A stretch of DNA of 64,000 bases, taken from contig NZ_AUIW01000003.1 in assembly GCF_000423905.1 (NCBI RefSeq), positions 62,001 through 126,000 of the forward strand, written 5' to 3'. The position numbers and the translations under genes were made by a program. The stretch is from Thermus antranikianii DSM 12462. Its GTDB lineage: Bacteria; Deinococcota; Deinococci; Deinococcales; Thermaceae. Within the stretch, counting starts at the first letter, position 1; each line of letters starts with the position of its first letter. The notes beneath the pieces were generated by a model. It was not told where the DNA came from, made no database searches, and saw nothing but the letters and a program-made list of their open reading frames with translations. Positions 1-64,000 of the stretch are shown here, piece by piece.

Positions 1-435
1 GGGGACGGGGAGGCCCTTGGGCTTTCGGAGAAGACCTACGAGCTATCCCAGTTCCTGGTGCGGGTGCTGGGCGTGACCGAGCTGGGGAAAGGGCTTAAGG
101 GGAAAAAGATAGCCTACCACCACGGCTGCCACGCCTTGAGGGAGCTTGGGGTCAAGGAGGAACCCCTTCTGCTCCTGAAAAACAGCGGGGCGGAGATCCT
201 CCCCTGGGAGGCGGCGGAGGAGTGCTGCGGCTTTGGGGGGCTCTTTTCGGTGAAGCTTCCCGAAGTCTCCCTGGCTATGGCCGACCGCAAGATCTCCACC
301 CTGCCCAAGGCGGATGCCCTCACCTCCACGGATGCCGGCTGCCTCCTCCACTTAACCGGACGCATGGGCAAACAGGGAAGGAACATGCGGGTGGTTCCCC
401 TGGCCACCCTTCTATGGGAGGCGTATGCAGGTTAA
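1..435 (+). CDS. lutA: LutA-type (Fe-S)-binding protein, 3' part only
   Basis: This is the C-terminal part of a CCG-domain iron-sulfur protein; the reading frame is open to the left window edge, so the start is missing. A cysteine-rich CCG signature (ECCGFGG) is seen around the middle of the fragment, followed by the expected C-terminal region. LutA works with LutB and LutC in oxidation of L-lactate to pyruvate in the cytoplasm. It overlaps lutB by 11 bp, which suggests translational coupling. The family identity is well supported by the two following genes; a glycolate oxidase GlcF-like subunit is the main alternative. Confidence 0.85.
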   Translation, partial: GDGEALGLSEKTYELSQFLVRVLGVTELGKGLKGKKIAYHHGCHALRELGVKEEPLLLLKNSGAEILPWEAAEECCGFGGLFSVKLPEVSLAMADRKISTLPKADALTSTDAGCLLHLTGRMGKQGRNMRVVPLATLLWEAYAG

Positions 436-1810
436 GGCCAAGCTCTATCCCAAAGAAGCCGCCAGGCTCCTAAGGGAACACCCCGGGGTGCGGGAGGCGG
501 TCACCGGAGCCACCCTGCACTTCGAGGAAGGCCGCAAGAGGGCTTACCAGGAGATCGACGCCGAGGCCTGGCGGGAAAGGGCCAAGAGGGTCAAGGACCA
601 CCTCCTCACCCACCTGGACCATTACCTGGAGCTGGCGGAAAAGAGGCTACAGGAAAAAGGCGTCCGGGTGCACTGGGCGGAGGATCCCGAGGAAGCCCAC
701 CGCATCCTGAGGGAGATTGTGGCCCGCCACGGGGTGAAGCGGGTGGTGAAGGCCAAGAGCATGCTCACGGAGGAGCTTGGGGTGAACCCCCTTCTCGAGT
801 CCCTGGGGGTGGAGGTGTACGAAACCGACCTCGGGGAATACCTGATCCAGCTCCTGGGGGAACCTCCAAGCCACATCGTAGGCCCGGCCATCCACCTGGC
901 CCTTCCCGACATCCAAAGGCTTTTCCACCAGCGCTTCGGTACCCCCCTGGACGCCTCCCCCGAGGCCCTGGCCGCCGTGGCCAGGAAGGTCTTGCGGGAA
1001 GCCTTCCTCACCGCCGACCTGGGCATCAGCGGGGCCAACTTCCTGGTGGCGGAAACCGGCACCCTGGCCCTCATGGAGAACGAAGGGAACATCCGCCTTT
1101 CCACAAGCCTCCCCAGGGTGCACGTGGCCTTCGTGGGGATCGAAAAGCTTCTCCCCCGCTTCGCCGACCTGGCCCTCTTCCTCCCCCTCACCGCCCGGGC
1201 CGCCACGGGGCAGCGGCTTTCCACCTACGTTTCCCTCATCCAGGGCCCGGCGAAGGAGGGAGAGGAGGGGCCTAAGGAGGTCCACGTGGTCCTGGTGGAC
1301 CACGGCCGCACCAGCCTTCTCCACGACCCCGAGGCCTGGGAGGTCTTGCGGTGCCTCCGTTGCGGGGCCTGCCTGAACGCCTGTCCCGTCTACCGCCAGA
1401 CCGGGGGGCACCCCTACGGCTACGTCTACTCGGGGCCCATCGGGGCGGTTCTGGACCCCGGGCTCCTGGGCCTCGAGGACACCTACCCCCTTCCCTACGC
1501 CTCCACCCTCTGCGGAGCCTGCTACGAAGCCTGCCCGGTGAAGATCCCCATCCCCAAGCTTCTCCTCACCTGGCGGCAGAGAGCGGTGGAGCGGGGCCTT
1601 GCCCCCACCTGGGAAAAAGGTGCCATGCAGGCCTTTTCCAAGGTGATGCAAAGCCCAAGCCTCTACCGGCTTTTCTCCAAGGCCCTAAGGGGCCTCCCCC
1701 TGCCCCAGGACCTCCTTCCCCTTCTTAAGGCCTGGACCGAGGGACGGGGTCCCTTACGGCCCAGCCCCAAGCCCTTCCACGAGCTTTGGCAGGAACTTAA
1801 CAAGGAGTAA
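425..1810 (+). CDS. lutB: LutB-type iron-sulfur protein of lactate utilisation
   Basis: The 461-residue protein has an N-terminal LUD (DUF162) domain and a C-terminal ferredoxin-like region. Two cysteine clusters, CLRCGACLNACP near residue 309 and CGACYEACP near residue 362, are typical ligands for two 4Fe-4S clusters. The length agrees with LutB/YkgF. It would pass electrons during L-lactate oxidation together with LutA and LutC. The ATG lies inside the end of lutA, and lutC follows 4 bp after the stop, so the three genes form one operon. Confidence 0.92.
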   Translation: MQVKAKLYPKEAARLLREHPGVREAVTGATLHFEEGRKRAYQEIDAEAWRERAKRVKDHLLTHLDHYLELAEKRLQEKGVRVHWAEDPEEAHRILREIVARHGVKRVVKAKSMLTEELGVNPLLESLGVEVYETDLGEYLIQLLGEPPSHIVGPAIHLALPDIQRLFHQRFGTPLDASPEALAAVARKVLREAFLTADLGISGANFLVAETGTLALMENEGNIRLSTSLPRVHVAFVGIEKLLPRFADLALFLPLTARAATGQRLSTYVSLIQGPAKEGEEGPKEVHVVLVDHGRTSLLHDPEAWEVLRCLRCGACLNACPVYRQTGGHPYGYVYSGPIGAVLDPGLLGLEDTYPLPYASTLCGACYEACPVKIPIPKLLLTWRQRAVERGLAPTWEKGAMQAFSKVMQSPSLYRLFSKALRGLPLPQDLLPLLKAWTEGRGPLRPSPKPFHELWQELNKE

Positions 1811-1814
1811 GGCC

Positions 1815-2384
1815 ATGGACGCCAAATCCCGCATCCTAAGCCGCATACGGCATGCCCTTAAGGAAAGGCCCAAGGCCCTTCTCCCCGAACATCCCCACCC
1901 GGCCCTTTCCCAAGATCCCCTGGAGTTTTTCCTGAAACGCCTGGCAGAGAACGGGGCCGAAGGCCACCTCGTGGATAAGGAAGGGGCCAGGAAGCTTCTT
2001 GCCGACCTGGCCCAGGGACTTCCGGGGGCTGCGTACGGCAAGGGGGTTCCCGACGCCCTCCGCCTCCTGCCGGAGCTTCCTCCCGAAGAGGCCCCCTTAG
2101 GGGTTTCCCGGGCCCTCTTCGCCGTGGCGGAAACGGGTACCGTGGCCCTCTCCTCGGAGGATGGCAGGAAGGCCCAGCTCTTGCCCCCCGTTCACCTGGT
2201 CCTGGTGGAGGAAGAAAAGGTTTATCCTAGCCTCCTCGAGGCCTTTTTGGACCTGAAATCCCTTCCCAGCGCCATAGGCCTTCACTCCGGCCCCTCCAAA
2301 AGCGCCGACATCGGCCAGGTGATGGTCAGAGGGGTGCACGGCCCCGGCCGGTTGGTGGTGGCCGTGCTTCAGGGCACCTGGTAG
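1815..2384 (+). CDS. lutC: LutC-type LUD domain protein
   Basis: A 189-residue single LUD-domain protein with the family motifs VAETGTVALSS and PPVHLVLV in its second half. It is the third component of the LutABC lactate-oxidation system. The ATG is 4 bp after the lutB stop. Its 3' end overlaps the convergent lepB gene by 16 bp, so the two transcripts would be antisense to each other at their ends. Confidence 0.9.
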   Translation: MDAKSRILSRIRHALKERPKALLPEHPHPALSQDPLEFFLKRLAENGAEGHLVDKEGARKLLADLAQGLPGAAYGKGVPDALRLLPELPPEEAPLGVSRALFAVAETGTVALSSEDGRKAQLLPPVHLVLVEEEKVYPSLLEAFLDLKSLPSAIGLHSGPSKSADIGQVMVRGVHGPGRLVVAVLQGTW

Positions 2385-3175: not shown

Positions 3176-3927
3176 ACCCCTCCCACTCTACCCCCTATCG
3201 CTTGCCTCGCCGCCTTGCGCCCTGCTTCCACAATCTCCTCTAGCCGACGAAAATCCTCTATGCCCACTCCGGCCAGATGGGGCCGCACGTAGACCTCGGG
3301 AGCATACAGGGTAAGGCGGACCGAGGTGAGGTGGAGCTGCATGAGATCCACCGCCCGCCGGGCCAAGGCCAAAAGGCCCTTGGGGGCTCCCATCACCTCC
3401 CGCCCAGGCGTTACATCCACGGCCCAGACCTCCGTGGCTCCTAAAAAACGAGCAGCGTCCACCGGCAGGTTGTCCAAAACCCCCCCATCAAAGAGGAGCT
3501 GCCCCTCCCGCTCCACCGGGGCAAGAAGCCCAGGATAAGCGGCGGAGGCCAGGACGGCGCTTGGCAGGTCCCCCTGGGTGAGAAAGAGAAGCCTCCCCGA
3601 AACCACGTCCACGGCGGTGACCGCCAGGGGTTTCTTCAGTCCGTCAAAGCTCTTGGGCAGGTGTTCCGCTAGGAAGTCCAGAAGCTTTCGCCGGGAAAAG
3701 ATCCCCTCCCGGGGGGAGAAGCCCAAAAGGCCAAGCCAGGGGGTCCGGCGGGCTAGGGCCAGCATCTCCTCCGGGGTTTTGCCCGCGGCGAAAAGCGCTC
3801 CCACGATGGCCCCCATGCTGGTCCCCGCCACCACCTGGAAGTCCAAACCTGCTTCCAGGAAGACCTCGAGGGCCCCGATATGGGCAAGCCCCCTAGCCCC
3901 TCCACCGGAAAGCGCCAAACCGCGCAC
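3172..3927 (-). CDS. Patatin-like phospholipase (RssA family)
   Basis: The 251-residue protein carries the patatin oxyanion motif GGGARG near the N-terminus, the nucleophile motif GTSMG (Ser37) and the DGG motif with the catalytic Asp at about residue 147. This predicts a Ser-Asp dyad acyl hydrolase acting on lipids or acyl esters; the true substrate is unknown. The start is GTG at 3927. A TAGGAT box at 3934-3939 on the minus strand is only 6 nt upstream, consistent with a leaderless mRNA. It is the first gene of a two-gene unit with lepB. Confidence 0.88.
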   Translation of the reverse strand: MRGLALSGGGARGLAHIGALEVFLEAGLDFQVVAGTSMGAIVGALFAAGKTPEEMLALARRTPWLGLLGFSPREGIFSRRKLLDFLAEHLPKSFDGLKKPLAVTAVDVVSGRLLFLTQGDLPSAVLASAAYPGLLAPVEREGQLLFDGGVLDNLPVDAARFLGATEVWAVDVTPGREVMGAPKGLLALARRAVDLMQLHLTSVRLTLYAPEVYVRPHLAGVGIEDFRRLEEIVEAGRKAARQAIGGRVGGV

Positions 3928-3968: not shown

Positions 3969-4754
3969 TTGGATATAGTGGAGGCGGTGAGCCTGGCGGG
4001 GAAGGTCCTTTTGAACCGATACCGGGTGGTGCGCCCCTTAGGCCAAGGCGCCCTGGCCACCGTCTACCTGGCCTTCGACCGCTTCGGCACCCCTTACGCC
4101 CTCAAGGTCTTCCCCAGGGGGGCCGAAGCCAGGCGCAACCGGGAGTTCTGGGTGGGTAGGCAGCTTTCCCACCCCAACCTGAACCCCGTCCTGGAGAGCC
4201 TGGACCTCGAGGAAGGCCCCGCCCTTCTTCTGGCCTACGCCCCTGGGGAGGAGATGGGGCGCTGGATGGGGCGTCGCCCCGAGCGCCCTAGGGCCCTATA
4301 TGTCTTCCGCCAACTCCTCATGGCCTTGGCCCACATGCACGGCAAGGGCCTGGTGCACCGGGACGTGAAGCCGGAGAACATCATCGTGGCGGGAACGGAC
4401 GAAGCCAAGCTGGTGGACTTTGACCTCTCGGGGCCAGCCCTCGAGGCCTTCAAGAAACCCCTAAGGGTGGGTACCCTTCCCTACCTGGCCCCCGAACAGG
4501 TCCTGGGGCAAAGCCCGGGCCCCGAGGCGGATGTGTACGCCGCGGGCATCATCCTGTACTGGATCCTCTCCGGGGAACACCCCTTTGTGGGTGGGCCAGA
4601 AGAGGTCCTCCTCGGCCACCTCCAGGAGCCCATTCCCCCTGTCCCCGGCCTGGCCCCCCCACAACAGGCCTATCTGGAGCGCCTCCTGGCCAAATCCCCC
4701 AAGGAACGTTTCCCCTCGGCGAGGGAGGCCCTCGAGGGGTTTCCCTTCCCCTGA
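3969..4754 (+). CDS. Serine/threonine protein kinase (Hanks type) with altered DFG motif
   Basis: A compact 261-residue eukaryote-like kinase domain without a transmembrane tail. Visible motifs are the glycine-rich loop GQGALATVY, the ATP-binding Lys at residue 46, HRDVKPEN at 130-137 and YLAPEQ in the activation segment. The Mg-binding DFG triad reads DFD (150-152). The proposed start is TTG with AGAGGTG 5 nt upstream. It is followed after a single base by a gene for a secreted protein, so the two are probably co-transcribed. Substrates are unknown. Confidence 0.88.
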   Translation: MDIVEAVSLAGKVLLNRYRVVRPLGQGALATVYLAFDRFGTPYALKVFPRGAEARRNREFWVGRQLSHPNLNPVLESLDLEEGPALLLAYAPGEEMGRWMGRRPERPRALYVFRQLLMALAHMHGKGLVHRDVKPENIIVAGTDEAKLVDFDLSGPALEAFKKPLRVGTLPYLAPEQVLGQSPGPEADVYAAGIILYWILSGEHPFVGGPEEVLLGHLQEPIPPVPGLAPPQQAYLERLLAKSPKERFPSAREALEGFPFP

Positions 4755-4755: not shown

Positions 4756-5820
4756 ATGGCTTCCTGCTGGATCCTCTCCACCCTTCTGGGCTCCGCCCTT
4801 TTCGCAGGACTGGGGGAGGTGGCGGTGGGGCGGCTCCTGGTGGAGGGGGGCCACCAAGCCCTCGTGGTGACGCAGGAGGGAGCCCACATTCTGGCAAAGA
4901 CGGATTCCGCCCTCTATGGGCTCGCCCGTACACCCGAGGGGTTCCTGGCCGTGGGCCACCTGGGAAAGAGCCTCCTCCGGGTGGGGCTGGACCCCAACGG
5001 GAAGCCCCTTTGGGCCGAGGCTGGCGGCCAGGGGATCCTCTGGGGAACGGATGGCCGCTTCGCCTGGGGAGGGTATATGGGCCCTGGGGGCTGGGAAGCT
5101 TTGGTGCTAGACCTGCTTGAGGAAAGAGCCTTCCGCCTTCCCCTGCCCGGCCAGGGGTACGCCTATGGGGGCTTGTACCGGCAGGGCGTTCTTTTCCTGG
5201 TGGGCCGGGTGGAGGGAGCGGGAGGGTTTGACGGCTTCCTTCTGGGCCTCCCGGTGGCCCGCCCCGGGCAGCCCTGGGCCTACGGGTACCGTAGCGGCTG
5301 GCCGGAGAACGACTACCTCCGCTTCCTGGGAGAAAGGGGGGCGGTGGGCCGGCTGGAGGTAAGCGGGGATTCCGAGGGGCTCCTTTTGGACTGGCTGGGC
5401 CTTAGCCAGGGAAAGGCCCGGCTCCTTCGCCGCCCCGGCTTTGACTACCTCAGGGCCTGGCGCGGGGCCTTCCTGGTGGGGGAGGCGGAGGTGGACGGGG
5501 TTTTGGAGGGCCTCTGGATCAGCCCACAAGGAGCCCGGTACGCAGGGGGTCCCATGGCTTCCCTGCGCGCCCTGGATCCCCCTTTGGCCTACGGGTACTC
5601 CTACCGTTCCCTTTTCCAGGGAGAGGGTCTGGTCCTGAACTTGGAAGAGCAGGTGGGTAGACCCTTGGCTTACCGCCTCGAGGCGCTACGGCTTCCCTGG
5701 TTGCCCTTTAGGACTAGGCCCCGGGCCCTCTCCCTAACCTGGAAACCCGTGGCCTGGGATCCCGAACCCACCCTAAGGCTCAAAGCCTGCCCTCCTGGCC
5801 CCGACCCCAAGCCAGACTGA
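4756..5820 (+). CDS. Secreted repeat-containing protein of unknown function, paired with kinase
   Basis: A 354-residue protein beginning with a hydrophobic segment that looks like a signal peptide (about residues 4-20). The remainder is rich in Gly, aromatic and Leu residues with repeated short beta-strand-like blocks, which could form a propeller-type fold; this is inference. I recognise no family. The ATG at 4756 is chosen because it follows the kinase stop by 1 bp and starts the signal-like segment; the frame is open further upstream inside the kinase gene. The pairing suggests a link between kinase signalling and an extracytoplasmic protein. Confidence 0.7.
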   Translation: MASCWILSTLLGSALFAGLGEVAVGRLLVEGGHQALVVTQEGAHILAKTDSALYGLARTPEGFLAVGHLGKSLLRVGLDPNGKPLWAEAGGQGILWGTDGRFAWGGYMGPGGWEALVLDLLEERAFRLPLPGQGYAYGGLYRQGVLFLVGRVEGAGGFDGFLLGLPVARPGQPWAYGYRSGWPENDYLRFLGERGAVGRLEVSGDSEGLLLDWLGLSQGKARLLRRPGFDYLRAWRGAFLVGEAEVDGVLEGLWISPQGARYAGGPMASLRALDPPLAYGYSYRSLFQGEGLVLNLEEQVGRPLAYRLEALRLPWLPFRTRPRALSLTWKPVAWDPEPTLRLKACPPGPDPKPD

Positions 5821-7425: not shown

Positions 7426-8184
7426 ATGCTCCTGGCCATAGACATCGGCAACACCTCCACGGTCCTGGGGGTCTTCTCCGGGGAGGAGCTCGTCGCCCAC
7501 TTCCGCATCCACACCGATCGGATGCGCATGGAAAGCGAGTACCGGGTCATCCTGAAAAACCTCTTCGCCCTCGAGGATCTCCCCCCTCCAAAAGCCGCCC
7601 TCCTCTCCAGCGTGGTGCCCCCCGTGGAGAGGGAGATGAAGGAGGCCATAGAGAAGCTCTTCGGCATCAAAGCCCAGGTGGTGGACGCCGGGGCCACAGG
7701 GCTCGAGGTGTGCATAGACAACCCCAAGGAGGCCGGCACCGACCGCCTGGTGAACGCCGTGGGCGCTTTGGGCTACGAAAGCCCCACGGGCCGCTACATC
7801 GTGGTGGACTTCGGCACCGCCACCACCTTTGACCTGGTGGAGGCCCCCAACCGCTACCTGGGTGGGGCCATCACCATCGGCCCTCAGACCGCCGCCGACG
7901 CCCTGGCGGCAAGGACCGCCAAACTCCCCCGCATAGACCTGGTCCCCCCCGCTCAGGTGGTGGGCAAGAACACGCTGGACGCCCTGCGCTCGGGCCTGGT
8001 CCTGGGCTATGCCGCCTTGGTGGAAGGCATGGTGCGCCGCTTCAAGGAGGAAGCCGGGGAAGCCCTAGTGATCGCCACCGGGGGCTTTGCGGAAACCCTA
8101 AGGGATCTCTGCCCTTCCTTTGACGTGGTGGACGAGGACCTAACCCTTAAAGGCCTTCTCCGCATCCACAAGGGGCAAGGGTAA
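7426..8184 (+). CDS. coaX: Type III pantothenate kinase
   Basis: A 252-residue ASKHA-fold kinase that phosphorylates pantothenate, the first step of coenzyme A synthesis. The N-terminal phosphate-binding motif DIGNTST, the central GTDRL block and the DFGTATTFD motif are all present, and the length is normal for CoaX. It follows the OsmC gene by 5 bp. Its last 38 bp overlap a convergent small gene. Confidence 0.95.
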   Translation: MLLAIDIGNTSTVLGVFSGEELVAHFRIHTDRMRMESEYRVILKNLFALEDLPPPKAALLSSVVPPVEREMKEAIEKLFGIKAQVVDAGATGLEVCIDNPKEAGTDRLVNAVGALGYESPTGRYIVVDFGTATTFDLVEAPNRYLGGAITIGPQTAADALAARTAKLPRIDLVPPAQVVGKNTLDALRSGLVLGYAALVEGMVRRFKEEAGEALVIATGGFAETLRDLCPSFDVVDEDLTLKGLLRIHKGQG

Positions 8185-9412: not shown

Positions 9413-10819
9413 ATGGCCCTTAAACGCCTGGAGCTTCCCCCGCCGCGGGTGCTCCTTTTGGTCCTCTTGGCCTTCCTGGGCTTCCTGGCCCTGGAGGGCT
9501 TTCTGCTTTGGGCCTACGGGGGCATGCCCCTCCGCTTGGGTCTCCTGGACCTGCTTTTCTGGGGCGCGCTCATGCTTTGGAGCGTGTCCGTTCGCGTCCC
9601 GCTCCCCTTAAGCGCCAGCATGAGCCAGTTTTTTGTCTTTGCCCTGGCTCTAGTAGCCTTAACACCCCCTTGGGTATCACCTCTTTTAAGTTTCGTGCTT
9701 CAGTGGCGCCGAAAAGCTTGGTACAAGGAAATCTTCAACAGCTCCCAGAACGGCCTAGCCTCCGCTTTGGCGGCCCTGGCCTGGCAGTTTTTTCAGCAGA
9801 ACCCCGTTTACATGGGTTCCTGGAATCTTTCCGCAGGGGTGGGTATCGCCGCGGCCTCCCTGGCCTTTTTTCTCGCCAACACCACCCTGGTGACCACCGC
9901 CATTTCCCTCGCCAACAAGATTACCTGGCGTGAGGCGTGGCGAAAAAACTTCAGCTGGCTCGCCCTGAGCTACCTCCTCCTCTCCCCCCTCGCCCTCCTC
10001 CTAGCCCGGGCCTACGAGACGCCCCTTCTCGCAGGGTGGGGCGGGTGGACGGTGCTCTTCTTCCTCATCCCCCTCTACTACAGCCGCTTCTACTGGGACG
10101 AGAAGGTGCGCCTGGAGCAGGCCTTTGACACCACCCTGGAGCTTCTCATGAACGCCCTGGAGGCCAAGGACCCCATGACCCGCCTGCACTCGGAGCGCGT
10201 GGCGGACATCGCCCGCGACCTGGCCAGGAAGGTGAAGGGAGGGGACGAGGCCTACGCCCAGGCCGTCTACCGGGCCTCGAGGCTCCACGACATCGGCAAG
10301 ATCGCCATCCCCGAGCACCTTCTCCTCAAGTCGGGAACCTTGACCCCGGAGGAGTACGGCCTCATCCAAAGCCACACCACCCGGGGCGCCGAGCTCCTCT
10401 CCCCGGCCCGGAAGGTGGCCTTTGACCCGCTCGTCTACAACGTCATCCTCTACCACCACGAGCGCTGGGACGGCCGGGGCTACCCAAAGCGGCTCGCCGG
10501 GCACGAGATCCCCGAGGAGGCCCGCATCGTGGGCCTGGCCGACGCCTACGAGGCCATGACCGCAGGCCGCCCCTACCGTAAGGCCAAGACCCCCGAGGAA
10601 GCCCTAAGGGAGGTCCAGGAGCTCTCCGGCCACCAGTTTGACCCTAAGCTGGTGGAGGCCTTCACCGAACTTTGGGAGCAGAACCCCATCTGGCGCGACC
10701 GCCAGGCCTACCTGGAAGCAAAGGAGGGATCGGTATCACACTCTACCTCTACGCCGCGCTCTTCGGATTCGGCCTCGCCCTCGCCCTCGGAGCCCGGCTC
10801 AAGGACCTCGGAGGGATAG
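9413..10819 (+). CDS. Membrane-anchored HD-GYP cyclic-di-GMP phosphodiesterase-type protein
   Basis: The 468-residue protein has about 5-6 hydrophobic segments in residues 10-220, then an HD-GYP domain. Metal-binding and signature motifs include RLHSERVADIAR, HDIGKIAIP, HHERWDGRGYP and the following LADAYEAMT block. It is expected to hydrolyse c-di-GMP at the inner face of the membrane in response to a signal sensed by the membrane part. A TACACT box at 9398-9403 is 9 nt before the ATG, so it may be leaderless. The last 25 or so residues are a Ser/Pro-rich tail that overlaps the next gene, which looks like an extension past an ancestral stop. Confidence 0.9.
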   Translation: MALKRLELPPPRVLLLVLLAFLGFLALEGFLLWAYGGMPLRLGLLDLLFWGALMLWSVSVRVPLPLSASMSQFFVFALALVALTPPWVSPLLSFVLQWRRKAWYKEIFNSSQNGLASALAALAWQFFQQNPVYMGSWNLSAGVGIAAASLAFFLANTTLVTTAISLANKITWREAWRKNFSWLALSYLLLSPLALLLARAYETPLLAGWGGWTVLFFLIPLYYSRFYWDEKVRLEQAFDTTLELLMNALEAKDPMTRLHSERVADIARDLARKVKGGDEAYAQAVYRASRLHDIGKIAIPEHLLLKSGTLTPEEYGLIQSHTTRGAELLSPARKVAFDPLVYNVILYHHERWDGRGYPKRLAGHEIPEEARIVGLADAYEAMTAGRPYRKAKTPEEALREVQELSGHQFDPKLVEAFTELWEQNPIWRDRQAYLEAKEGSVSHSTSTPRSSDSASPSPSEPGSRTSEG

Positions 10820-12454: not shown

Positions 12455-12480
12455 CCCCTCGAGGGGAGGTCCTCGAGGGG
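12455..12480 (+). terminator. Hairpin after hicdh built from two CCTCGAGG units
   Basis: CCCCTCGAG (12455-12463) pairs with CTCGAGGGG (12472-12480) over an 8-nt loop, followed by a weak T-rich run. Both arms carry the octamer that is over-represented throughout the window. Confidence 0.55.
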
Positions 12481-21109: not shown

Positions 21110-21337
21110 ATGCGCAGGGTAAGTGTACATGAGGCTAAGGCCAAGCTCTCCGAACTCCTCGAGGCGGCACGCCGGGGGGAAGAGATCGTCATCACCCGTT
21201 ACGGCCGCCCCTTGGCCCGCCTGAGCCCCTGGGAGGAAGGGGTACGACTAGGCACCTTGCGGCGTCTGGGCCCTGTGGATTGGGAAGCCTTCCACGCCCC
21301 CTTGCCAGAGGAGGAGCTCACGGCATGGGAGGGCTGA
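21110..21337 (+). CDS. Phd/YefM-type antitoxin
   Basis: A 75-residue antitoxin with the typical N-terminal DNA-binding block VSVHEAKAKLSELLEAARRGE followed by ITRYGRPLARL. It would repress its own operon and neutralise the downstream PIN toxin. A TAGTCT box at 21096-21101, made from the aroB stop, is 8 nt before the ATG. The toxin ATG lies 13 bp inside its end, so the two are coupled. Confidence 0.9.
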   Translation: MRRVSVHEAKAKLSELLEAARRGEEIVITRYGRPLARLSPWEEGVRLGTLRRLGPVDWEAFHAPLPEEELTAWEG

Positions 21338-21725: not shown

Positions 21726-23102
<1,377 letters not shown>

Positions 23103-39707: not shown

Positions 39708-39757
39708 GCCTATACCAGTTTAGGGTTAGCCTCGAGGGGCAAACGTCCCGCCCCCTG

Positions 39758-51389: not shown

Positions 51390-52340
51390 GTGCTGGAGCT
51401 TTCCCTGGAAAAGCGCTTTCCCGGTTTTCAACTGGCCCTAGACCTTGCTGTTCAGGAAGGAGAGGTCCTGGCCCTCCTAGGACCCTCGGGCAGCGGGAAG
51501 AGCACCCTGCTGAAGCTCGTCGCCGGCCTCCTTTCCCCCGACCGGGGTTTCGTGCGCTTCCGCGGGCAGGACCTCACCCCCCTGCCCCCGGAAAGGCGGG
51601 GGGTAGGGTTTCTTTTCCAGGACTACGCCCTCTTCCCTCACCTTACCGTGGCGGAAAACATCACCTTTGGCCTGGTGGAGGCCCGTTGGCCCAGGAAGGA
51701 GCGAGAGGCACGGGTGAAGGAACTCCTTGAACGCATGGAGCTCACCCCCCATGCCCAAAAGCGCCCCCAGGAGCTTTCCGGGGGAGAGCAGCAACGGGTA
51801 GCCCTGGCCCGGGCCCTGGCGCCAAGGCCAAGGCTTCTCCTCCTGGACGAGCCCCTGGGAGCCCTGGACTTGAGGCTACGGGAGGAGCTTCTCTTCTTTT
51901 TGCGCAGGACCCTTCGGGCGGAAGGGGTGACCACCCTGGTGGTCACCCACGACCAGGGGGAGGCCTTCCTCCTGGCCCACCGGGTAGCCCTCCTGCGGCA
52001 GGGAAGGCTCGTGCAGGTGGGAGTTCCGGAAGAGGTGTACGCAAGGCCCAAGGACCTCTGGACCGCCCGCTTCCTCGGGCACAAGAACCTCCTCTCCCCG
52101 GAGGAAAGCCAGGCCCTGGGCTTGCCTGCCAAGCCCCACCTTCTTTTGCCCAAAGCCCTTCGCCTGGGAGGGGAGCACCCAGGGGTGGTGGAGGAACGGC
52201 TTTTCTTCGGAAACAGGGTGGGGCTTTGGGTGCGGCTTGGGAAGGTGCGGCTTTACCTCGAGGCCCTGGAAGGCCCCCCGGAGGGAGCCCAGGTCCACCT
52301 CCACCTGGATCCTTCCCAGGCGGTACCCTTGGAGGGATGA
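51390..52340 (+). CDS. ABC transporter ATPase, possibly thiamine uptake
   Basis: A protein of about 316 residues. It has Walker A GPSGSGKST, signature LSGGEQQRVALARAL, Walker B LLLDEPLGALD, switch THDQGEAF, and a C-terminal extension like FbpC/ThiQ-type importers. The overlap with thiamine pyrophosphokinase suggests a thiamine or precursor importer, but no permease or binding protein is nearby. The start is uncertain: GTG 51390 is too close to GGAGG, and TTG 51375 lies in the terminator. Confidence 0.82.
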   Translation: MLELSLEKRFPGFQLALDLAVQEGEVLALLGPSGSGKSTLLKLVAGLLSPDRGFVRFRGQDLTPLPPERRGVGFLFQDYALFPHLTVAENITFGLVEARWPRKEREARVKELLERMELTPHAQKRPQELSGGEQQRVALARALAPRPRLLLLDEPLGALDLRLREELLFFLRRTLRAEGVTTLVVTHDQGEAFLLAHRVALLRQGRLVQVGVPEEVYARPKDLWTARFLGHKNLLSPEESQALGLPAKPHLLLPKALRLGGEHPGVVEERLFFGNRVGLWVRLGKVRLYLEALEGPPEGAQVHLHLDPSQAVPLEG

Positions 52341-53141: not shown

Positions 53142-55819
<2,678 letters not shown>

Positions 55820-56767: not shown

Positions 56768-59388
56768 AGAAGGCCCGGCTCCAGCCCCTGGGAGAGGATC
56801 CCGGGGGCTTTTTCCAACTCCCGAAGGGCCTCCTGAAGCTCTTTTGGCGAGAAAACGTGAACTTTTTTGTGCCTTAAATAGACCAAACGGGCTTCAGCCT
56901 CCACCCCCCAGGCCCGCCGCACCGCCTCCCAGTAAAGGGCTAACTGCAGGCGGTAATGCTCCGGGGCCACCCTCTGGTCGGTCTTGTAGTCCTCCAGGTA
57001 CCAACATTCCCCCACCCGGTAGAGCCGGTCCAAAACCCCTTGCCAAACGGTACCCGCATGGGACAGGGCTAAGGGAAGCTCCACATGATCCTCGTCTCTA
57101 GCCTCCAAGCCCGGGAGGAGGCTTCCCAGCATCTCCCGGTAGGAGCCAAGAAGCCCCTTGACCTCCTCGAGAAGCCGGGCCTTTTCCTCCTCCTCAAACG
57201 GAAGGGCCACCTCCTGCAGGAGGAGAGCCTGCATCCTGGCCTCGTCCCCTGGATCTAGGTCGCGGGCGAGGGCGTAGTGGACCAGGGTTCCCAAGGCCCG
57301 CGCGAACCCGGGAAGCCCCTCGGCCTCCAGGGACTCGCCCAAGGGCAAGGGTTCCCCTTCCGCCTTGCGGTGGGCGCTCGGGGAATAAACCGGAGGAAAG
57401 GGCTTGGGGGGTAGGATCAAGGAGGCATAGGGAGCAGGCTGGGGAGAAGGCATGGGGGAAGGCGGAGGAAACCTCGGCACTCCCTTTCCGTCATGCACCC
57501 GCACCCGGGAATCCCCGGACTCGGGTCCCAAGCCCAGGGCCGCAAGGGCCTTAGCCCAAGGACCAGGATAGGAAGAAGCGCTCCCTGTAAGCACTAGGAC
57601 GTCCCGGGCCCGGGATAGCGCCACGTAAAGGAGCCTTAGGGCCTCCTCCTTCTGAGCCCTTCTCAAAACTGGCCTTACCTGCTGATAGGCGGGTGTGCCC
57701 TTCAGGGCCACCTCCCCTCCAAGCCCCACCAGAAGGGCCTCCTCCTGCAAGCGCTCCTTCCGGGAAAGGTCAAAGACCCCCACCACCGGCCACTCTAACC
57801 CCTTGGCGGCATGCACGGTGAGGACATGCACTCCCTCCCCTCCTTCGGGCAGCTCAGCAGCCTCGGGATCCCTTGCCCTTACCTTCAGCCAGTCGAGTAG
57901 GGCCTCGAGGTCGGGGAAGCGCTCGGAAGCTGCCAGGAGGAGAAGGGTATCCAGGTTGGTGCGGGCCCTTTGGGAAAGCCGCATAAGGAAGGTCTCGTCC
58001 CTCACCAGGGCCTTTAGCGCTTCAAAGGGGTGTTTTCCCGCAAGGGCCTTAAGCCAGCCCAAGCGGCTTTGTACCTCCGGAGGCAGGTGGACAAGGGGAT
58101 CCTCCTCCTTGAGAGCCTTCTCCATCCGTCCAAGATCCAAGCCCACGAAGGGGCCCCGCAGGAACGCCATAAGGGAGAAGCGCTCCTCCGGGGAAGGCGT
58201 ACCCTCCAGGAGGCCAACCCTTAAGGCGTGGTAGATGTCCCGCACCTCCAGGCGGCTAAAGAAGCTCCGTCCCCGGCGGATACCGTAAGGTACCCCCAGG
58301 GCACGGAAAGCTCGCTCCAGGTAGGGAAGGCTGGTGCGGCTTCGCACCAAGACAGCCATGTCCGAGAAGGCATAGCCTTCCTCCTTGAGAGCCAAAAGCC
58401 TCTGGGCCAAAATCATGGCCTCCTGCAGGCGCTTTTCCTCGAGGCTTCCCTCCCCGACCACCCAATGCACTTCCACCCGGCCTTCTCCTTCCCGCCTGGG
58501 CCGCACCAAAACCCTTTCCGGCTCAGGAAAGAACCTCTCCACGAAGGCGTTTAAAAAGGCGGCAAGTCCTTGGGCGTGGCGGAAGGTTTCCCCAAGGGGA
58601 CGCACCTCCTCAGCCCTTCTCAAGGCCTCGCGGAAAACCTCCACCTGGGCGTTGCGGAAAAGGTAGATGGACTGCTTGGGATCCCCCACGGCCACCACCC
58701 TAGCTCCCGCCTCCTCCAGGGCCCGGAAGAACCGCCCCTGCAAAGGGTTTACATCCTGGTACTCATCCACGAGGAGATGGGGAAAGCGCTCCACCACCCT
58801 CCTTACTGCCTGGGGATGTTCCAGAAGACGAAGGGCCAAGGCCTCGAGATCCCCTGGCCCCAGCATCTCCACGGTCCGCCTCCGGTAAGCCGCCAGTACC
58901 TCCTGGAAGAGGGCAAAGATTCCTTCCGCCCCTGAGAGGGGCTTGAGCTCGGCCGCCAGGGAGCGCTTCCTGTAAAGGGTCAAGAGCTGGTCCAAAAGCC
59001 CCTCCTTCTGCAAGGGGTCTATACCCTTCAGATAGAGGAGGCTCCGGGCTTCTTCCAAGAAGAGGGTTTCGGCCAAAAACTCGTCTAAGATGGAGAAATC
59101 CGGGTCCAAGGAGAGGAGAGGGGCAGTGTGGCGAAGGGCCGCGGCCATGAAGCCGTGAATGGTGGTAAAAAGAGCGCCGTGCGCCTCCCGCCTGGCCTCC
59201 TTCCCCTCTAGGCCCTCTAAGGCCCCCACCTCCTGAAGAATGCGCCCCCTGAGCTCCTCGGCGGCCTTACGGGTGAAGGTGACGGCGGCCATGCGCCTTA
59301 AGGGCACCCCTTGGCGCAGAAGGGTCAAAAGCTCCTGCACCAGGGTATGGGTCTTCCCCGTACCCGCCGAGGCCACGTAGAGCTTCAC
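56764..59388 (-). CDS. addA: AddA-like helicase-nuclease
   Basis: An 874-residue UvrD-family SF1 helicase with a C-terminal PD-(D/E)xK nuclease. Walker A is [11 protein letters not shown], Walker [12 protein letters not shown], and motif IV-VI blocks include [12 protein letters not shown] and LLYVALSRA. The nuclease motif is [18 protein letters not shown]. With AddB it resects DNA double-strand breaks for recombination. The GTG start at 59388 overlaps addB by 4 bp and has GGAGGA upstream; the longer frame overlaps addB. Confidence 0.92.
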
Positions 59389-61583
59389 AGCTCCTCCTTT
59401 CGGCAAAGGTCCTCGAGACCGCAGGTATGGCAGTAGGGGCCGGGCTTCGGAGGAAACGCGCCTTGACGCCACAGCTGGTAGGCTTCCCTTGCTCGCTTTC
59501 GTACCTCCCCCACCGCCTTGGGAAGTTCCTTATCCGAACTTTGGCGGTATTGGAGGGAAGGCCTCCCCATCCAAGGCCAGATCCAAAGCCTGACCTCAGC
59601 GACATCCTTCCGGTTCACCAGGACCCCGAGGGCATACCACTCCGTCCAGCGCTTTTGAGGATCCAGGTCCGGCTCCCCATCCTGGGGGAGGAGGCGGTAG
59701 AGGTGGACCACGTTCCCCTCCCGACGAACCCCATCCAGGCGCAAGGGGGGCTTCCCAGGCAAGGAAAACCAGAAGCGCATACCCTCCCAGTGGGCGCGGT
59801 GGGCCTCAAGCCAAAGGCCCACCTCAGGATGGGCCAGAAGCCTTTCCAGTTCCGCGGGAAGAAGGTGCCAACCCAGGGCCCCATCCCGCACCTTAAGGCC
59901 AAAGCGTTCCACATAGGCACGAAAAGGGCATTCCCGGAAACGGCGGAGGACCTCCAGGTGGGGCGGGGGCTCCTGCCCCGAGGGTAAGGGTGGGGCAAAG
60001 GAATTATGGGGTAAGGCCTCGAGGCGGCTTGCAGGCGGCAAGGCCTCGGGCCTATCTCCCCTTTCCAAGGGCAGGTGGAGCCCAGAAGGGCCGGCCTCGG
60101 GGTAGAGGAGGAAGACCTCCTCCCCCCGGGTGGAAACCTCCTCCCGGAAGAGGGGATCAAGGCCCCTCAAGCGCCGGACCAGCCCCTTTAAAAGTCCCCT
60201 TTCCCTTAGCTCCTCCAGGAGAAAGTAATCCTCCCCTTCCTTCAGGCTATACCGCCCCGCCACCCACTCCAACACGTACGCCCTTCGGGCCCTCACCCCC
60301 ATGGCCCGAAGGGGAGGAAGGAGGGAAACCCCCCGGTTGGGCTCCGGAGAAAGGCTCTCGTCCAGTAAGAGGCTTCGCCACCAGGCTAAAGGATTCCCTC
60401 TATCCGCCCTCAAGGCCAGCCGCAGGCGGGAAAGGAAGGGCTCCTTGAGAGAAACCCCCAGGTGTTCCAAAGCACCTTCCGCCCAGGCCAGGACATCGGG
60501 CCCTGGGGTGCGGAGCTCCTGGAAGGCCCGCCACTCCTCCCCAAGCCCCTCCCGCTCCGCTAGGGCCTCCAAGGCCTCCTCTCCCGCCAAACCTAGCCTT
60601 AGGGCCTTTCTGCCCAGACGAGAAAACCCCAGGACCAGGAGGTCCCGTCCCGTGGGGTAAGGGTTCAGGAGAGCCAAGACCCTTTCCCCCTCTTCGGTGT
60701 CGGCCAGGGCCCTTTCCCGACCATCGAAGAGGGGGAGGCCGTACTCGTCCTTTAGAAGGAGAAGCCCTCCAATACGCTCCTCGGGGGCCACCACCAGGAC
60801 CTCCCAGGGGTCTAACCCCTCCCCACCCATCTCCCTGGGAACCAGGGCCCGCTTCAAGGCCCTTAAGAGGTAACGGCTTTCCTCCACAGGGTTGGCCAGG
60901 GCCAAGACCTGCTTCCGCACCGGCCTCGAGGAAAGAACCCGCCAGGGCTTCAAGTCTTCCGGGAGAAGTTCCAGGGTGAGAAGGACGGGTACCTCCTGGG
61001 CCAGGCGCTTAAGGAAGCGGAGGTCCAAAGGACCCACCTCCCGGAAGCCGTCCACCACCACCAGATCGGGCCTCGGGAAAAGGCGAAGGGGCACGCGGCC
61101 CGCCCGGTGGCGGAAGTCGTCATAGTCCAGGGCCTTTCCCTTCAGGCGCTCGTAGGCAAGGTAGACCCGCCTGAGCCTTCCTGCTTCCCCCTCCTTGGGT
61201 AGGGCAAAAGGGGAGAGGCCATAGCGCTTGAGTTCCGCTATCGCCCGGGCGAAAAGCCGGGCCTCCCCGGGGGCGACCCCTTCCCCGTAGAGGCTTCTAA
61301 GGGCCTCTCCCACCAGGGCCACCCTTCCCGCCCCGGGAAGCAAGGGCCCAAGCCGGCCCACCTCCGCCAGCACCCGGTAGTAAAGGGCCTGGAAGGACAT
61401 GAACTCCAGGCCCAGCACCGCCTCTTCCCCCCCGAAAAGGCGGTACACGTAGGCCCTTTGGTGGGGCAAGCCCACCCAGTAGACCCTCCCCCGCCGATTC
61501 AGGACCTCCAAGGCCCATTCCCGGGCCAGGGTGGTCTTCCCTGAGGCAGGGGGGCCTAGGAGGGGATAGAGACCCGGCTTCAT
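59385..61583 (-). CDS. addB: AddB-like helicase-nuclease subunit
   Basis: A 732-residue protein with a Walker A GPPASGKTTLA at the N-terminus, a degenerate helicase core, and a C-terminal nuclease. Four Cys that would hold an Fe-S cluster are visible: one in RFRECPFRAYVERFG and three in CHTCGLEDLC at the end. The ATG at 61583 begins at the P-loop; a TAAAAT box (61592-61597, minus strand) is 8 nt upstream. The frame continues open to 62240 but overlaps another gene, so I reject that extension. Confidence 0.88.
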   Translation of the reverse strand: MKPGLYPLLGPPASGKTTLAREWALEVLNRRGRVYWVGLPHQRAYVYRLFGGEEAVLGLEFMSFQALYYRVLAEVGRLGPLLPGAGRVALVGEALRSLYGEGVAPGEARLFARAIAELKRYGLSPFALPKEGEAGRLRRVYLAYERLKGKALDYDDFRHRAGRVPLRLFPRPDLVVVDGFREVGPLDLRFLKRLAQEVPVLLTLELLPEDLKPWRVLSSRPVRKQVLALANPVEESRYLLRALKRALVPREMGGEGLDPWEVLVVAPEERIGGLLLLKDEYGLPLFDGRERALADTEEGERVLALLNPYPTGRDLLVLGFSRLGRKALRLGLAGEEALEALAEREGLGEEWRAFQELRTPGPDVLAWAEGALEHLGVSLKEPFLSRLRLALRADRGNPLAWWRSLLLDESLSPEPNRGVSLLPPLRAMGVRARRAYVLEWVAGRYSLKEGEDYFLLEELRERGLLKGLVRRLRGLDPLFREEVSTRGEEVFLLYPEAGPSGLHLPLERGDRPEALPPASRLEALPHNSFAPPLPSGQEPPPHLEVLRRFRECPFRAYVERFGLKVRDGALGWHLLPAELERLLAHPEVGLWLEAHRAHWEGMRFWFSLPGKPPLRLDGVRREGNVVHLYRLLPQDGEPDLDPQKRWTEWYALGVLVNRKDVAEVRLWIWPWMGRPSLQYRQSSDKELPKAVGEVRKRAREAYQLWRQGAFPPKPGPYCHTCGLEDLCRKEEL

Positions 61584-61722: not shown

Positions 61723-62160
61723 TCAGGGGATGGCCTCCGGGGAAAGGGGCAGGGGGGTGAGATCCGAGCCCAGGCGCAACACCCCAACCACCCGCCCCCG
61801 GTGGAGGACAAAACAGCGGTACCCCTCCGGCAGGACCAGCACCCGCCGGGCCAGGGAGAGCTCCCGCAGGAAGAAGAAGGGGCGCATCCGCATGGGCTTT
61901 CCGCGGATGGGACCCATGTAGGGCATGGGCCTGCCCCCCTCGAGGGCCAAGAGAAGCAGGGGCCTCTCCCCCACCGCCTGGCCCAGGACCAGGACCAGGG
62001 TATCCCCTTCCCGGTAGAGGGCCTGGACCTCGAGGGTCCGCACCACCTTAAAGCATCGCGCCAGCACTTCCTCCGGCGAGGGACCAAAGCCCTTGGGGCC
62101 CTCCTCTCCCAGGGCCCAGCCCCCGAGGGCCAGGAGGAGGAAGATCCCAAGCCACCGCAT
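61723..62160 (-). CDS. Secreted hypothetical protein
   Basis: A 145-residue protein with a signal peptide (about 1-19) and an alpha/beta-looking remainder with two Cys (RCFKVV and YRCFVL) that could form a disulfide. No family recognised. ATG 62160 is chosen because it begins the signal peptide. It may share a transcript with the gene at 62267-62839, 107 bp upstream on the same strand, although a hairpin lies between them. Confidence 0.65.
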   Translation of the reverse strand: MRWLGIFLLLALGGWALGEEGPKGFGPSPEEVLARCFKVVRTLEVQALYREGDTLVLVLGQAVGERPLLLLALEGGRPMPYMGPIRGKPMRMRPFFFLRELSLARRVLVLPEGYRCFVLHRGRVVGVLRLGSDLTPLPLSPEAIP

Positions 62161-62266: not shown

Positions 62267-62839
62267 TTAGAAGCCCCGCTCGGCCGAGATCAGGGCCAAG
62301 GCCGCCCGGGCCAACAGGAAGGCCCGGCCAGGCTCCTTGGAAAGCCTATTCTTGGCCTCGGCCACCAGATCCTTCACCAGGCTATCCTGGGCCCGGTAGT
62401 AGGCGAGCTCCTTCTCCGCCCGGTCCACTGCCCCCGGGGCCCTCTGGGCAAAGCGGGCACTCGAGCCCGGTCGCCCCTTACCCCACGGGGCAAAGGCATG
62501 GGCCCTGGGTCCAAAGGGATGGTGCATCCCCATATGGGGGGCTGGCCTCGGCCCCCGGGCCTGTACCTGGGGTTCCCCTGAGGCCGCCCGGAAAAGAAAA
62601 AGGGCGGCCTGGGCCTCCCGCGCCGCCTTGAAGTACGCCTTGGCCTCGTAGCTCTTCTCCGCCCGGGCCTTCACCTCCTTGGCCCAGGCGAGAAGCTTTT
62701 CCTCCCCCGTGGCCCCTTGGGCCACCGCCTGGAGCCTGGCCAAGGCCGCCGAGGCTACCGCCGCCTGCCGGTAATCCGTGCCTTGGGCCAAGGAAAGGCC
62801 CGCCATCAGGAGAACCAAACCCATGAGCACCTGTTTCAT
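62267..62839 (-). CDS. Secreted helical protein with His/Pro-rich middle
   Basis: A 190-residue exported protein with a signal peptide (about 1-18). Two helical regions (about 22-90 and 135-190) flank a Gly/Pro/His-rich linker containing APHMGMHHPFGPRAHAF. The four His and two Met in that linker could bind a metal; this is inference. It lies directly after the histidine kinase and could be a periplasmic partner. Confidence 0.7.
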   Translation of the reverse strand: MKQVLMGLVLLMAGLSLAQGTDYRQAAVASAALARLQAVAQGATGEEKLLAWAKEVKARAEKSYEAKAYFKAAREAQAALFLFRAASGEPQVQARGPRPAPHMGMHHPFGPRAHAFAPWGKGRPGSSARFAQRAPGAVDRAEKELAYYRAQDSLVKDLVAEAKNRLSKEPGRAFLLARAALALISAERGF

Positions 62840-62863
62840 TCCCTCTCACCTCCGCACTGGAGG

Positions 62864-64000
62864 CTATCCCCTCTGGCTAAAGGGCGCATCGGGCGAAACC
62901 TTAAGGGAAGCCAAAGGCAGGTAAAGCCCCACCGCCGCCCCGTCCTGGTTCTCCACCCTTGCCCTTCCCCCATGGGCCCGGGCCACCGCCGCCACCAAGG
63001 CGAGGCCCAGGCCCGTGCCCCTTCCCCCATGGGCAAAGGGCTCCAGGGCCCGGGGCAAGAGCTCCTCGGGGAAGCCAGGTCCGGAGTCCACAAGCCAAAG
63101 CCAAACCCCCTCCTTGTCCCGCTGGATCCTGGCCTTAAGGGGTAGCTTCCCGTGGCGGCGGGCGTTGTCCAACACGTTTTCCACCGCCAGGGCGAGAAGC
63201 TCAGGGTCCGCCAGAACCTGGCCTTCCCCTTCCACCTCCAGGCCCCATCCCCCCAAGAAAGCCCGCAGGTCCAGGGGGATGAGCCTGGGGGAGGTGGCCT
63301 CGAGGCGGGATAGCCTGAGGAGCCCGGAGAGCAAAGCCTCCATCCTCTCCGCCTCCCGTAAGGCCCCGGCGAGGGCCCTGGGTTCGGGCTTGCGCAGGAG
63401 CACCTCCAAGTACCCCTTCAAGGCAGCCAGGGGATTGCGAAGCTCGTGGGAGGCATGGCGGGCAAAACGGCGGGCCGACTCCTCCTTCTCGGAAAGCTCC
63501 CTAAGAAGCCCCTCCACCTGGGCCAGGCGGCTGTTCAAGGCCTCCACCAAGGGCCTTAGCTCCGCCAAACCAGGGTTGGGAAGGGGGCTTAGGTCCTCAG
63601 GCCGCCGGGCCTCCAAGAGCTTGGCCAGCTGCCCCAGGGGACGAAGAGCCCAAGCGAGCCCCAGGGCGGAGAGCAGAAAGATGGCCAAAAGCACCCCTCC
63701 ACCCCAGGTGGCGTAGAGGAGGAGAAGCCTCCGCCCCAGGCCGGCGACCCCCTCCAAGGGGACCGCCAGGCCGAACCCTCCCTCCCCCCGGGGCAGGGCC
63801 ACGTAGAGCACCCCCCGCCACACTCCCTGGTAGGCTCGTCCCTGAGCAAGGGCCTCGAGGAGACCGGGGGGAAGGTTGGGGGAGGGCACCTCGGTGAAGG
63901 CCACGCCCTCCTTCCCTATCACGAAGCCCGTGCCGCCCCCATAGACCTGGGCCAGGCGGAAAAGCTCGAGAAGAAGGGCCTCCTCTTCCCCAGGCCCCTC
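62864..64000 (-). CDS. Sensor histidine kinase, 5' end beyond window
   Basis: The frame is open to the right edge, so the N-terminus is missing; 378 residues are visible. They include part of an extracytoplasmic sensor, a membrane helix, a HAMP-like linker, the H-box HASHELRNPLAALKGY, and ATPase boxes ENVLDNARRHG, DSGPGFP and GRGTGLGLALV. It autophosphorylates on His and would pass phosphate to a response regulator, probably encoded just beyond the window. Confidence 0.93.
   Translation of the reverse strand, partial: EGPGEEEALLLELFRLAQVYGGGTGFVIGKEGVAFTEVPSPNLPPGLLEALAQGRAYQGVWRGVLYVALPRGEGGFGLAVPLEGVAGLGRRLLLLYATWGGGVLLAIFLLSALGLAWALRPLGQLAKLLEARRPEDLSPLPNPGLAELRPLVEALNSRLAQVEGLLRELSEKEESARRFARHASHELRNPLAALKGYLEVLLRKPEPRALAGALREAERMEALLSGLLRLSRLEATSPRLIPLDLRAFLGGWGLEVEGEGQVLADPELLALAVENVLDNARRHGKLPLKARIQRDKEGVWLWLVDSGPGFPEELLPRALEPFAHGGRGTGLGLALVAAVARAHGGRARVENQDGAAVGLYLPLASLKVSPDAPFSQRG

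What the first reader, a model, noticed from the sequence alone, without database searches (positions are those of the whole stretch)
1..64000. Strong excess of the palindrome CCTCGAGG across the window
By eye I count about 70 CTCGAG hexamers, and about 50 of them sit in the full octamer CCTCGAGG. With roughly 67-68% GC and independent bases, one expects about 20 hexamers and only 2-3 octamers in 64 kb. The octamers occur in genes on both strands, usually in the frame CTC-GAG-G (Leu-Glu-Ala/Val/Gly), and also in non-coding DNA such as 12455-12480 and near 39731. This resembles the HIP1 octamer of cyanobacteria. It could mark a methylation, repair, uptake or chromosome-organisation signal. Codon-pair bias is the simplest alternative.
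Basis: partly seen in the sequence, partly recalled or inferred. Interest (0 to 1): 0.75.

Follow-up and report, generated by a model that had tools for sequence, protein, structure and literature searches.

The report
Thermus palindrome from class-wide CTCGAG excess
The DNA word CCTCGAGG is repeated about 1,800 times across this Thermus genome, and its six-letter core CTCGAG is hugely over-used in many related bacteria (up to about 28,000 copies per genome), a pattern resembling the HIP1 words of cyanobacteria and probably tied to enzymes that methylate that core.

Summary
Observation confirmed: 72 CTCGAG and 55 CCTCGAGG in the window (about 2 octamers expected by chance). The genome, a Thermus, has 1,814 copies. 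The excess holds in all 27 Thermus genomes, on plasmid pTT27, in all reading frames and in non-coding DNA, evenly along the chromosome. It is absent from phages P23-45 and phiYS40 and from a Deinococcus plasmid. Codon usage and codon-pair order explain only a third to a half of it. The wider feature is the hexamer: CTCGAG is in excess in the non-Thermus Thermaceae (1.4-3.4 per kb) and extreme in two related lineages (6-7.7 per kb). In Thermus, TCGA is otherwise avoided and only the C..G-flanked octamer is enriched. Single sites turn over like ordinary synonymous positions: density, not position, is kept. Best explanation: a HIP-like iterated palindrome coupled to solitary m6A methyltransferases. 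Thermus carries an M.TaqI orthologue, orphan in this genome; Calidithermus and four Meiothermus carry XhoI/PaeR7I-type enzymes (CTCGAG); the other 14 Meiothermus carry an unassigned enzyme instead. Methylation was not observed. Some strong cases (G001, G002, G050, the two densest lineages) lack an identified matching enzyme, and the cause of the 8-bp rule is unknown.

The parts
1..64000 (.). Region over which CCTCGAGG is iterated: 55 copies, 72 CTCGAG in all
   Evidence: genome-wide
1471..1478 (.). CCTCGAGG
2234..2241 (.). CCTCGAGG
3864..3871 (.). CCTCGAGG
4205..4212 (.). CCTCGAGG
4439..4446 (.). CCTCGAGG
4730..4737 (.). CCTCGAGG
5676..5683 (.). CCTCGAGG
7569..7576 (.). CCTCGAGG
10275..10282 (.). 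CCTCGAGG
12457..12464 (.). CCTCGAGG, non-coding, left arm of a predicted hairpin with the next copy
12471..12478 (.). CCTCGAGG, non-coding, right arm of the hairpin
13992..13999 (.). CCTCGAGG
14755..14762 (.). CCTCGAGG
17741..17748 (.). CCTCGAGG
19205..19212 (.). CCTCGAGG
19936..19943 (.). CCTCGAGG
20636..20643 (.). CCTCGAGG
21062..21069 (.). CCTCGAGG
21157..21164 (.). CCTCGAGG, outside called genes, probably in a small antitoxin-like ORF
22229..22236 (.). CCTCGAGG
23551..23558 (.). CCTCGAGG
25147..25154 (.). CCTCGAGG
26347..26354 (.). CCTCGAGG
27573..27580 (.). CCTCGAGG
27603..27610 (.). CCTCGAGG
28119..28126 (.). CCTCGAGG
28287..28294 (.). CCTCGAGG
29903..29910 (.). CCTCGAGG
30080..30087 (.). 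CCTCGAGG
31187..31194 (.). CCTCGAGG
31698..31705 (.). CCTCGAGG
32628..32635 (.). CCTCGAGG
32768..32775 (.). CCTCGAGG
34925..34932 (.). CCTCGAGG
36862..36869 (.). CCTCGAGG
38862..38869 (.). CCTCGAGG
39039..39046 (.). CCTCGAGG
39730..39737 (.). CCTCGAGG, non-coding
44095..44102 (.). CCTCGAGG
44362..44369 (.). CCTCGAGG
45509..45516 (.). CCTCGAGG
46393..46400 (.). CCTCGAGG
48384..48391 (.). CCTCGAGG
52256..52263 (.). CCTCGAGG
53297..53304 (.). CCTCGAGG
54778..54785 (.). CCTCGAGG
54979..54986 (.). CCTCGAGG
57903..57910 (.). CCTCGAGG
58437..58444 (.). CCTCGAGG
60017..60024 (.). CCTCGAGG
60924..60931 (.). CCTCGAGG
61938..61945 (.). CCTCGAGG
62028..62035 (.). CCTCGAGG
63298..63305 (.). CCTCGAGG
63853..63860 (.). 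CCTCGAGG

Best explanation
CCTCGAGG is the Thermus form of a highly iterated palindrome whose core, CTCGAG, is over-used in much of this bacterial class. SHOWN: a strong DNA-level excess that does not depend on reading frame, is spread along the replicon, is found on resident replicons but not in two lytic phages, and is kept as a density while single sites turn over. INFERRED: the core is the target of solitary N6-adenine methyltransferases that write CTCG(m6A)G. In Thermus this would be an M.TaqI orthologue (TCGA); in Calidithermus and four Meiothermus an XhoI/PaeR7I-type enzyme (CTCGAG); in the other Meiothermus an unassigned enzyme that stands in its place. The mark, or the protein that reads it, is useful at a certain density, so any substitution that creates a site is weakly favoured wherever it falls. 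In Thermus a second force, avoidance of TCGA left by the TaqI restriction system, removes most other TCGA sites, so only the best context (C..G) stands out. What reads the mark, and why C..G is preferred, is not known.
For: Not codon usage or codon-pair order: frames 5/16/343 against synonymous shuffles 0.3/1.3/115 and a codon-pair chain of 155 in frame 2; 19 intergenic sites against 1.4-1.7; repeated in a second Thermus, G029: 5/10/285 against 0.35/1.0/98, and 32 intergenic against 1.7. All 27 Thermus and all 50 Thermaceae exceed the reversed word. Hexamer core class-wide: 6-7.7 per kb in f2-g7 and f3, 1.4-3.4 per kb in g2-g4, in all frames and between genes there (f3: 387/154/110 against 62/16/10; intergenic 151 against 4). 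Uniform along the chromosome (20 stretches, mean 16.6, variance 13.3). On pTT27 (36 in 50 kb against 4-7), not in D. radiodurans MP1, not in phages. Enzymes: the own genome has an M.TaqI orthologue (E 5e-168, TaqI_C domain) between kbl and gyrB with no TaqI endonuclease beside it, as in five other Thermus examined; the endonuclease is present in two; an M.TaqI-sized Eco57I-family hit is in 27/27 Thermus. It is the only enzyme found in the own genome that could read a continuous TCGA-centred palindrome, out of five methyltransferase families searched. MT600 of Calidithermus and Meiothermus is 64% identical to a plasmid methylase that sits next to an XhoI-family endonuclease (PF04555, 1e-106), and in G108 broken XhoI gene pieces lie beside it; PaeR7I methylates the A of CTCGAG (PMC3031569). 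MT600 (4) and MT560 (14) exactly partition the 18 Meiothermus-type genomes. dN/dS is 0.04-0.49 across the four enzymes. G084, G089 and G106, with no hit in the five families, show little or no out-of-frame excess.
Against: No methylation data were available. The enzymes differ between lineages, and G001, G002 (g2), G050, f2-g7 and f3, all with strong excess, have no enzyme assignable to CTCGAG. M.TaqI reads only TCGA, so it cannot explain the 8-bp rule. MT560 is present in some f5 genomes with weak excess (e.g. G083, 18 CTCGAG in 20 kb). Motif codons are no better conserved than others (CTC 80.3% against 80.7%; 60% against 69%). The partition of Meiothermus may be a single historical swap. G106 has some intergenic octamer excess (14 against 1.4) without a detected enzyme.
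Confidence: 0.45

Rival explanations
1. A DNA-binding protein (nucleoid, segregation or repair factor) conserved in the class recognises CTCGAG, with flank preferences that changed in Thermus; methylation is incidental or only modulates it.
For: Strong excess in lineages without an identified CTCGAG methylase (G001, G002, G050, f2-g7, f3). Even distribution and kept density. Flank rules differ by lineage: C..G favoured in Thermus and G050, CCTCGAGG scarce among CTCGAG sites in G072, G073, G099.
Against: No candidate protein was identified; spacing of sites is close to random (CV 0.8-1.06), so no phased array.
Confidence: 0.25
2. Repair or conversion drive: a very-short-patch-like or nuclease-driven process converts near-matches into the palindrome, with no benefit to the cell.
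For: Turnover without conservation of single sites fits a drive.
Against: CCTTGAGG and CTTGAG, the substrates of a T:G repair, are not depleted (O/E 1.44 and about 1.2). The commonest alternative state at orthologous sites is the transversion CCTGGAGG (CCTCCAGG on the other strand).
Confidence: 0.1
3. Codon and codon-pair usage: Thermus favours CTC-GAG for Leu-Glu in high-GC genes.
For: 343 of 364 coding sites are CTC-GAG-G; synonymous shuffles already give 115 and a codon-pair chain 155. In the f5 genomes G084 and G089 this accounts for almost all of the octamer count.
Against: 12-16-fold excess in the other two frames and 11-19-fold between genes in Thermus; in f3 all frames and intergenic DNA are enriched. 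CTC-GAG is almost confined to the C..G context (343 of 392), which codon choice alone does not predict.
Confidence: 0.07
4. Palindromic Chi-like site for the AddAB-type helicase-nuclease encoded in the window (56764-62240), marking self DNA during repair.
For: AddA-like protein in the window (UvrD helicase plus PD-(D/E)XK nuclease); phages lack the motif; Deinococcus, known to lack RecBC/AddAB (my knowledge), lacks it on plasmid MP1.
Against: Three of the highest-density genomes (G054, G055, G057) have no PF12705 match, while AddA-type hits occur in f5 genomes with weak excess. Known Chi sites are not palindromic (my knowledge).
Confidence: 0.06
5. DNA uptake sequence for natural transformation.
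For: Thermus is naturally competent and the window holds pilM and pilQ.
Against: The strongest excess is in relatives whose competence is unknown; Thermus uptake is regarded as not sequence-specific (my knowledge; the review read here, PMC8578077, mentions no uptake sequence).
Confidence: 0.04

Closest known systems
HIP1 (GCGATCGC) of cyanobacteria and the alternative HIPs (Elhai 2015, PMC4390886)
   Same: A GC-rich palindrome iterated about once per kb in Thermus, in coding and non-coding DNA; core shared with solitary methyltransferases; some lineages carry a different form or none.
   Different: Different sequence and phylum; the core reaches 6-7.7 per kb here; the enzymes are m6A of the TaqI/XhoI type; single-base neighbours do not concentrate at the outer positions; several strong cases have no assigned enzyme.
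XhoI/PaeR7I restriction-modification (CTCGAG)
   Same: MT600 of Calidithermus and four Meiothermus is of this type (64% identity to a plasmid methylase beside an XhoI endonuclease).
   Different: No intact XhoI endonuclease was seen beside it in the loci examined (broken pieces in G108), and the target is over-used rather than avoided.
TaqI restriction-modification (TCGA)
   Same: M.TaqI orthologue at a fixed locus in Thermus; TCGA avoided outside the octamer.
   Different: The endonuclease is missing in this genome and in five of the other seven Thermus loci examined; recognition is 4 bp, not 8.
Orphan CTCGAG methyltransferase of Nocardia (Blow 2016, PMC4752239)
   Same: Same target, solitary enzyme.
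   Different: There the sites cluster near dnaA; here they are spread evenly.

Membership tests
Highly iterated palindrome (HIP) | Short GC-rich palindrome far above expectation and top-ranked among 8-mers | tested here: met
Highly iterated palindrome (HIP) | Excess in coding and non-coding DNA and in all frames | tested here: met
Highly iterated palindrome (HIP) | Persists across a clade, with losses or replacements | tested here: met
Highly iterated palindrome (HIP) | Genome encodes methyltransferases that target the core | tested here: inconclusive
   Candidate in 48 of 50 Thermaceae by family and length; XhoI-type assignment by neighbour for MT600; missing in G001, G002 and unassigned in f2-f3; MT560 target unknown
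Highly iterated palindrome (HIP) | One-base deviants concentrate at the outer positions (reported for HIP1) | tested here: not met
   In this Thermus, positions 3 and 4 dominate, through synonymous codons
Cyanobacterial HIP1 itself | Sequence GCGATCGC in a cyanobacterium | tested here: not met
   Sequence and phylum differ
TaqI restriction-modification system (own genome) | M.TaqI orthologue with NPPY and TaqI_C specificity domain | tested here: met
TaqI restriction-modification system (own genome) | Adjacent TaqI endonuclease | tested here: not met
   no match in the 10-kb locus
XhoI/PaeR7I methyltransferase (MT600) | Close homology to a methylase paired with an XhoI endonuclease | tested here: met
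XhoI/PaeR7I methyltransferase (MT600) | Methylates CTCGAG in the cell | not testable with these tools
   no methylation data
Chi site | Occurs together with its helicase-nuclease | tested here: inconclusive
   three of the highest-density genomes lack a PF12705 match
DNA uptake sequence | Promotes uptake of DNA | not testable with these tools
   no uptake data

The most novel reading that the evidence does not exclude
Thermaceae and sister lineages evolved, independently of cyanobacteria, a genome-wide iterated mark (CTCGAG) kept at about 1-8 copies per kb and served by interchangeable methyltransferases captured from different restriction systems (TaqI, XhoI and others), so that the site and its density persist while the enzyme is replaced. 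The most extreme members carry about 28,000 sites.
Probability: 0.35. Interest if true: 0.8.

Novelty: new variant of a known kind. Interest (0 to 1): 0.62.

Why it matters
HIP1 in cyanobacteria, described in 1995, still has no agreed function. A second, independent case in a different phylum, with a shorter core, much higher density, laboratory-friendly hosts (Thermus thermophilus, Meiothermus) and enzymes of known target type, would make the link between iterated palindromes and solitary methyltransferases testable by gene deletion and long-read methylation calls. It also explains a sequence bias that affects any k-mer, cloning or restriction analysis of these genomes.

Tried and rejected
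Codon-pair bias as sole cause: rejected. Very-short-patch repair: CCTTGAGG not depleted, and turnover is mainly by C/G transversion. Regular spacing or ori/ter bias: none found. Chi/AddAB: presence across genomes does not fit. One universal methyltransferase: PF02384, PF00145, PF01555, PF02086 and PF07669 are each patchy over the class. I first took the f5 genomes without methyltransferases (G084, G089, G106) as counter-examples to a methylation link, but their octamers turned out to be mostly codon-driven, so they were dropped from that role. Per-site conservation: no signal. Literature: no paper in the searched library holds both Thermus and CCTCGAGG, and no description of this excess was found; most subscription papers were not searchable.
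Full report
Observation. The window holds 72 CTCGAG and 55 CCTCGAGG; independent bases predict 22 and 2.2, and Markov models of order 1-3 predict 3.3-6.4 octamers. The octamer is the commonest 8-mer in the window. The genome is a Thermus: its nearest named relatives by AroC are T. scotoductus and T. tenuipuniceus. It carries 1,814 octamers against 200 of the reversed word. In a 464-kb sample the octamer ranks first of all 8-mers (768 both-strand counts, 99 expected at order 3, z 67). Outside the octamer TCGA is scarce: 842 against 1,430 expected at order 2.

Codon usage. In that sample 343 of 364 coding copies read NNC-CTC-GAG-GNN. Synonymous shuffles within genes give 115 there, and a codon-pair chain gives 155, so codon effects explain a third to a half. 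In the other two frames 16 and 5 are seen against 1.3 and 0.3. CTC-GAG is used almost only when preceded by C and followed by G (343 of 392), and CTC-GAA is avoided (7 against 130). Between genes there are 19 copies in 39.5 kb against 1.4-1.7, although some of these sit in small uncalled ORFs (for example window 21157). A second Thermus (G029, 400 kb) repeats the pattern: frames 5/10/285 against 0.35/1.0/98, intergenic 32 against 1.7. In G029 the CTCGAG hexamer as a whole is near its codon expectation in the Leu-Glu frame (333 against 318); it is the octamer that is in excess.

Distribution. All 27 Thermus and all 50 Thermaceae genomes searched exceed the reversed word. Over 111 genomes of the class, CTCGAG reaches 5.9-7.7 per kb in G051, G052 and G054-G057 (up to 28,178 copies, while GAGCTC has 2-25), 3.6 per kb in G050 and 1.4-3.4 per kb in genera g2-g4. 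In the f3 sample every frame is enriched (387/154/110 against 62/16/10) and non-coding DNA even more (151 against 4). In f5 the excess is weak: G084 and G089 are almost explained by codon use. G053 has none, and a D. radiodurans plasmid has 3 CTCGAG against 11-17 expected. The Thermus plasmid pTT27 has the octamer (36 in 50 kb), while 50 kb each of phages P23-45 and phiYS40 have none. Flank rules differ: C..G makes up 84% of CTCGAG in this Thermus and 46% in G050, against about 1% in f3 and 0.1% in G072 and G073 (from the counts).

Evolution of sites. Against 11 Thermus species, CTC codons inside the motif keep their codon in 60% of cases against 69% elsewhere; against G029, 80.3% against 80.7%. 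Single sites are therefore not protected, although density is stable. Lost sites are mostly CCTGGAGG or, on the other strand, CCTCCAGG, a synonymous transversion, and CCTTGAGG is not depleted, which argues against repair of deaminated bases. Along G029 the counts per 20 kb have mean 16.6 and variance 13.3, with no origin or terminus trend. In f3 spacing is close to random.

Enzymes. In the own genome, five methyltransferase families give: no DNA methylase in PF01555 (the single weak hit is a PrmA-like protein, named from its sequence), none in PF00145, one type I HsdM-like protein, a large type IIG-like protein and an M.TaqI orthologue, and no convincing PF02086. The M.TaqI orthologue (407 aa, E 5e-168) keeps NPPY and the TaqI_C domain, lies between kbl-like and gyrB-like genes, and has no TaqI endonuclease beside it. 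Of eight Thermus loci examined two keep the endonuclease. By hit span and length all 27 Thermus have it; orthology was checked by sequence in eight. In genera g2-g4 a solitary RsrI/CcrM-like enzyme (MT310) sits beside trpBA-like genes in the loci examined; its target is unknown. Of the 18 Meiothermus-type genomes (g4), 14 carry MT560 and the other four carry MT600; both g3 genomes carry MT600. MT600 is 64% identical to a plasmid methylase followed by an XhoI-family endonuclease, and in G108 broken XhoI pieces follow it. PaeR7I, of the CTCGAG type, methylates the adenine (PMC3031569). All four enzymes show dN/dS below 0.5. MT560 resembles M.BseCI only weakly, and its target is unknown.

Interpretation. 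The pattern fits a HIP-like iterated palindrome coupled to solitary adenine methyltransferases that can be exchanged between lineages, as HIP1 is coupled to GATC and CGATCG enzymes in cyanobacteria (PMC4390886). In Thermus, inherited avoidance of TCGA plausibly leaves only the favoured context visible. This is inference: methylation was not seen, G001, G002, G050 and the two densest lineages have no assigned enzyme, and the 8-bp rule is unexplained. A class-wide DNA-binding protein is the main rival. No description of this excess was found in the open-access library searched.

Noticed in passing
window 12450-12480: Two octamers 14 bases apart form a strong predicted hairpin (CGCCCCTCGAGGGG / CCTCGAGGGGTG region) just downstream of the gene ending at 12438; it may act as a transcript terminator.
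   Followed up: partly
window and own genome: CCTTAAGG is a second over-used palindrome (188 both-strand counts against 54 expected at order 3), also of the form CCTYRAGG.
   Followed up: no
window 56764-62240, - strand: AddA-like helicase-nuclease next to a 950-aa protein with only a weak PD-(D/E)XK match, probably AddB-like.
   Followed up: partly
window 12630-21098: pilM to pilQ competence/pilus genes followed by aroC, aroK and aroB-like genes.
   Followed up: no
L099-L104, L118 (f3 genomes): Besides the CTCGAG excess, many other palindromes (GAGCTC, GGATCC, CTGCAG, TCCGGA) are nearly absent, suggesting heavy restriction pressure.
   Followed up: partly
L213-L220, L224, L228, L229: A solitary RsrI/CcrM-like methyltransferase (MT310) beside trpBA-like genes is found throughout the non-Thermus Thermaceae loci examined, under strong purifying selection; its target is unknown.
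   Followed up: partly
L156:6096-6787: Broken XhoI-family endonuclease pieces directly after an XhoI-type methylase in G108, a restriction system in decay.
   Followed up: yes
L221:3981-5551: A second common Thermus methylase (SPPY motif, PF01555) is followed by a conserved 225-aa gene with no NCBIfam match; possibly a restriction partner.
   Followed up: no
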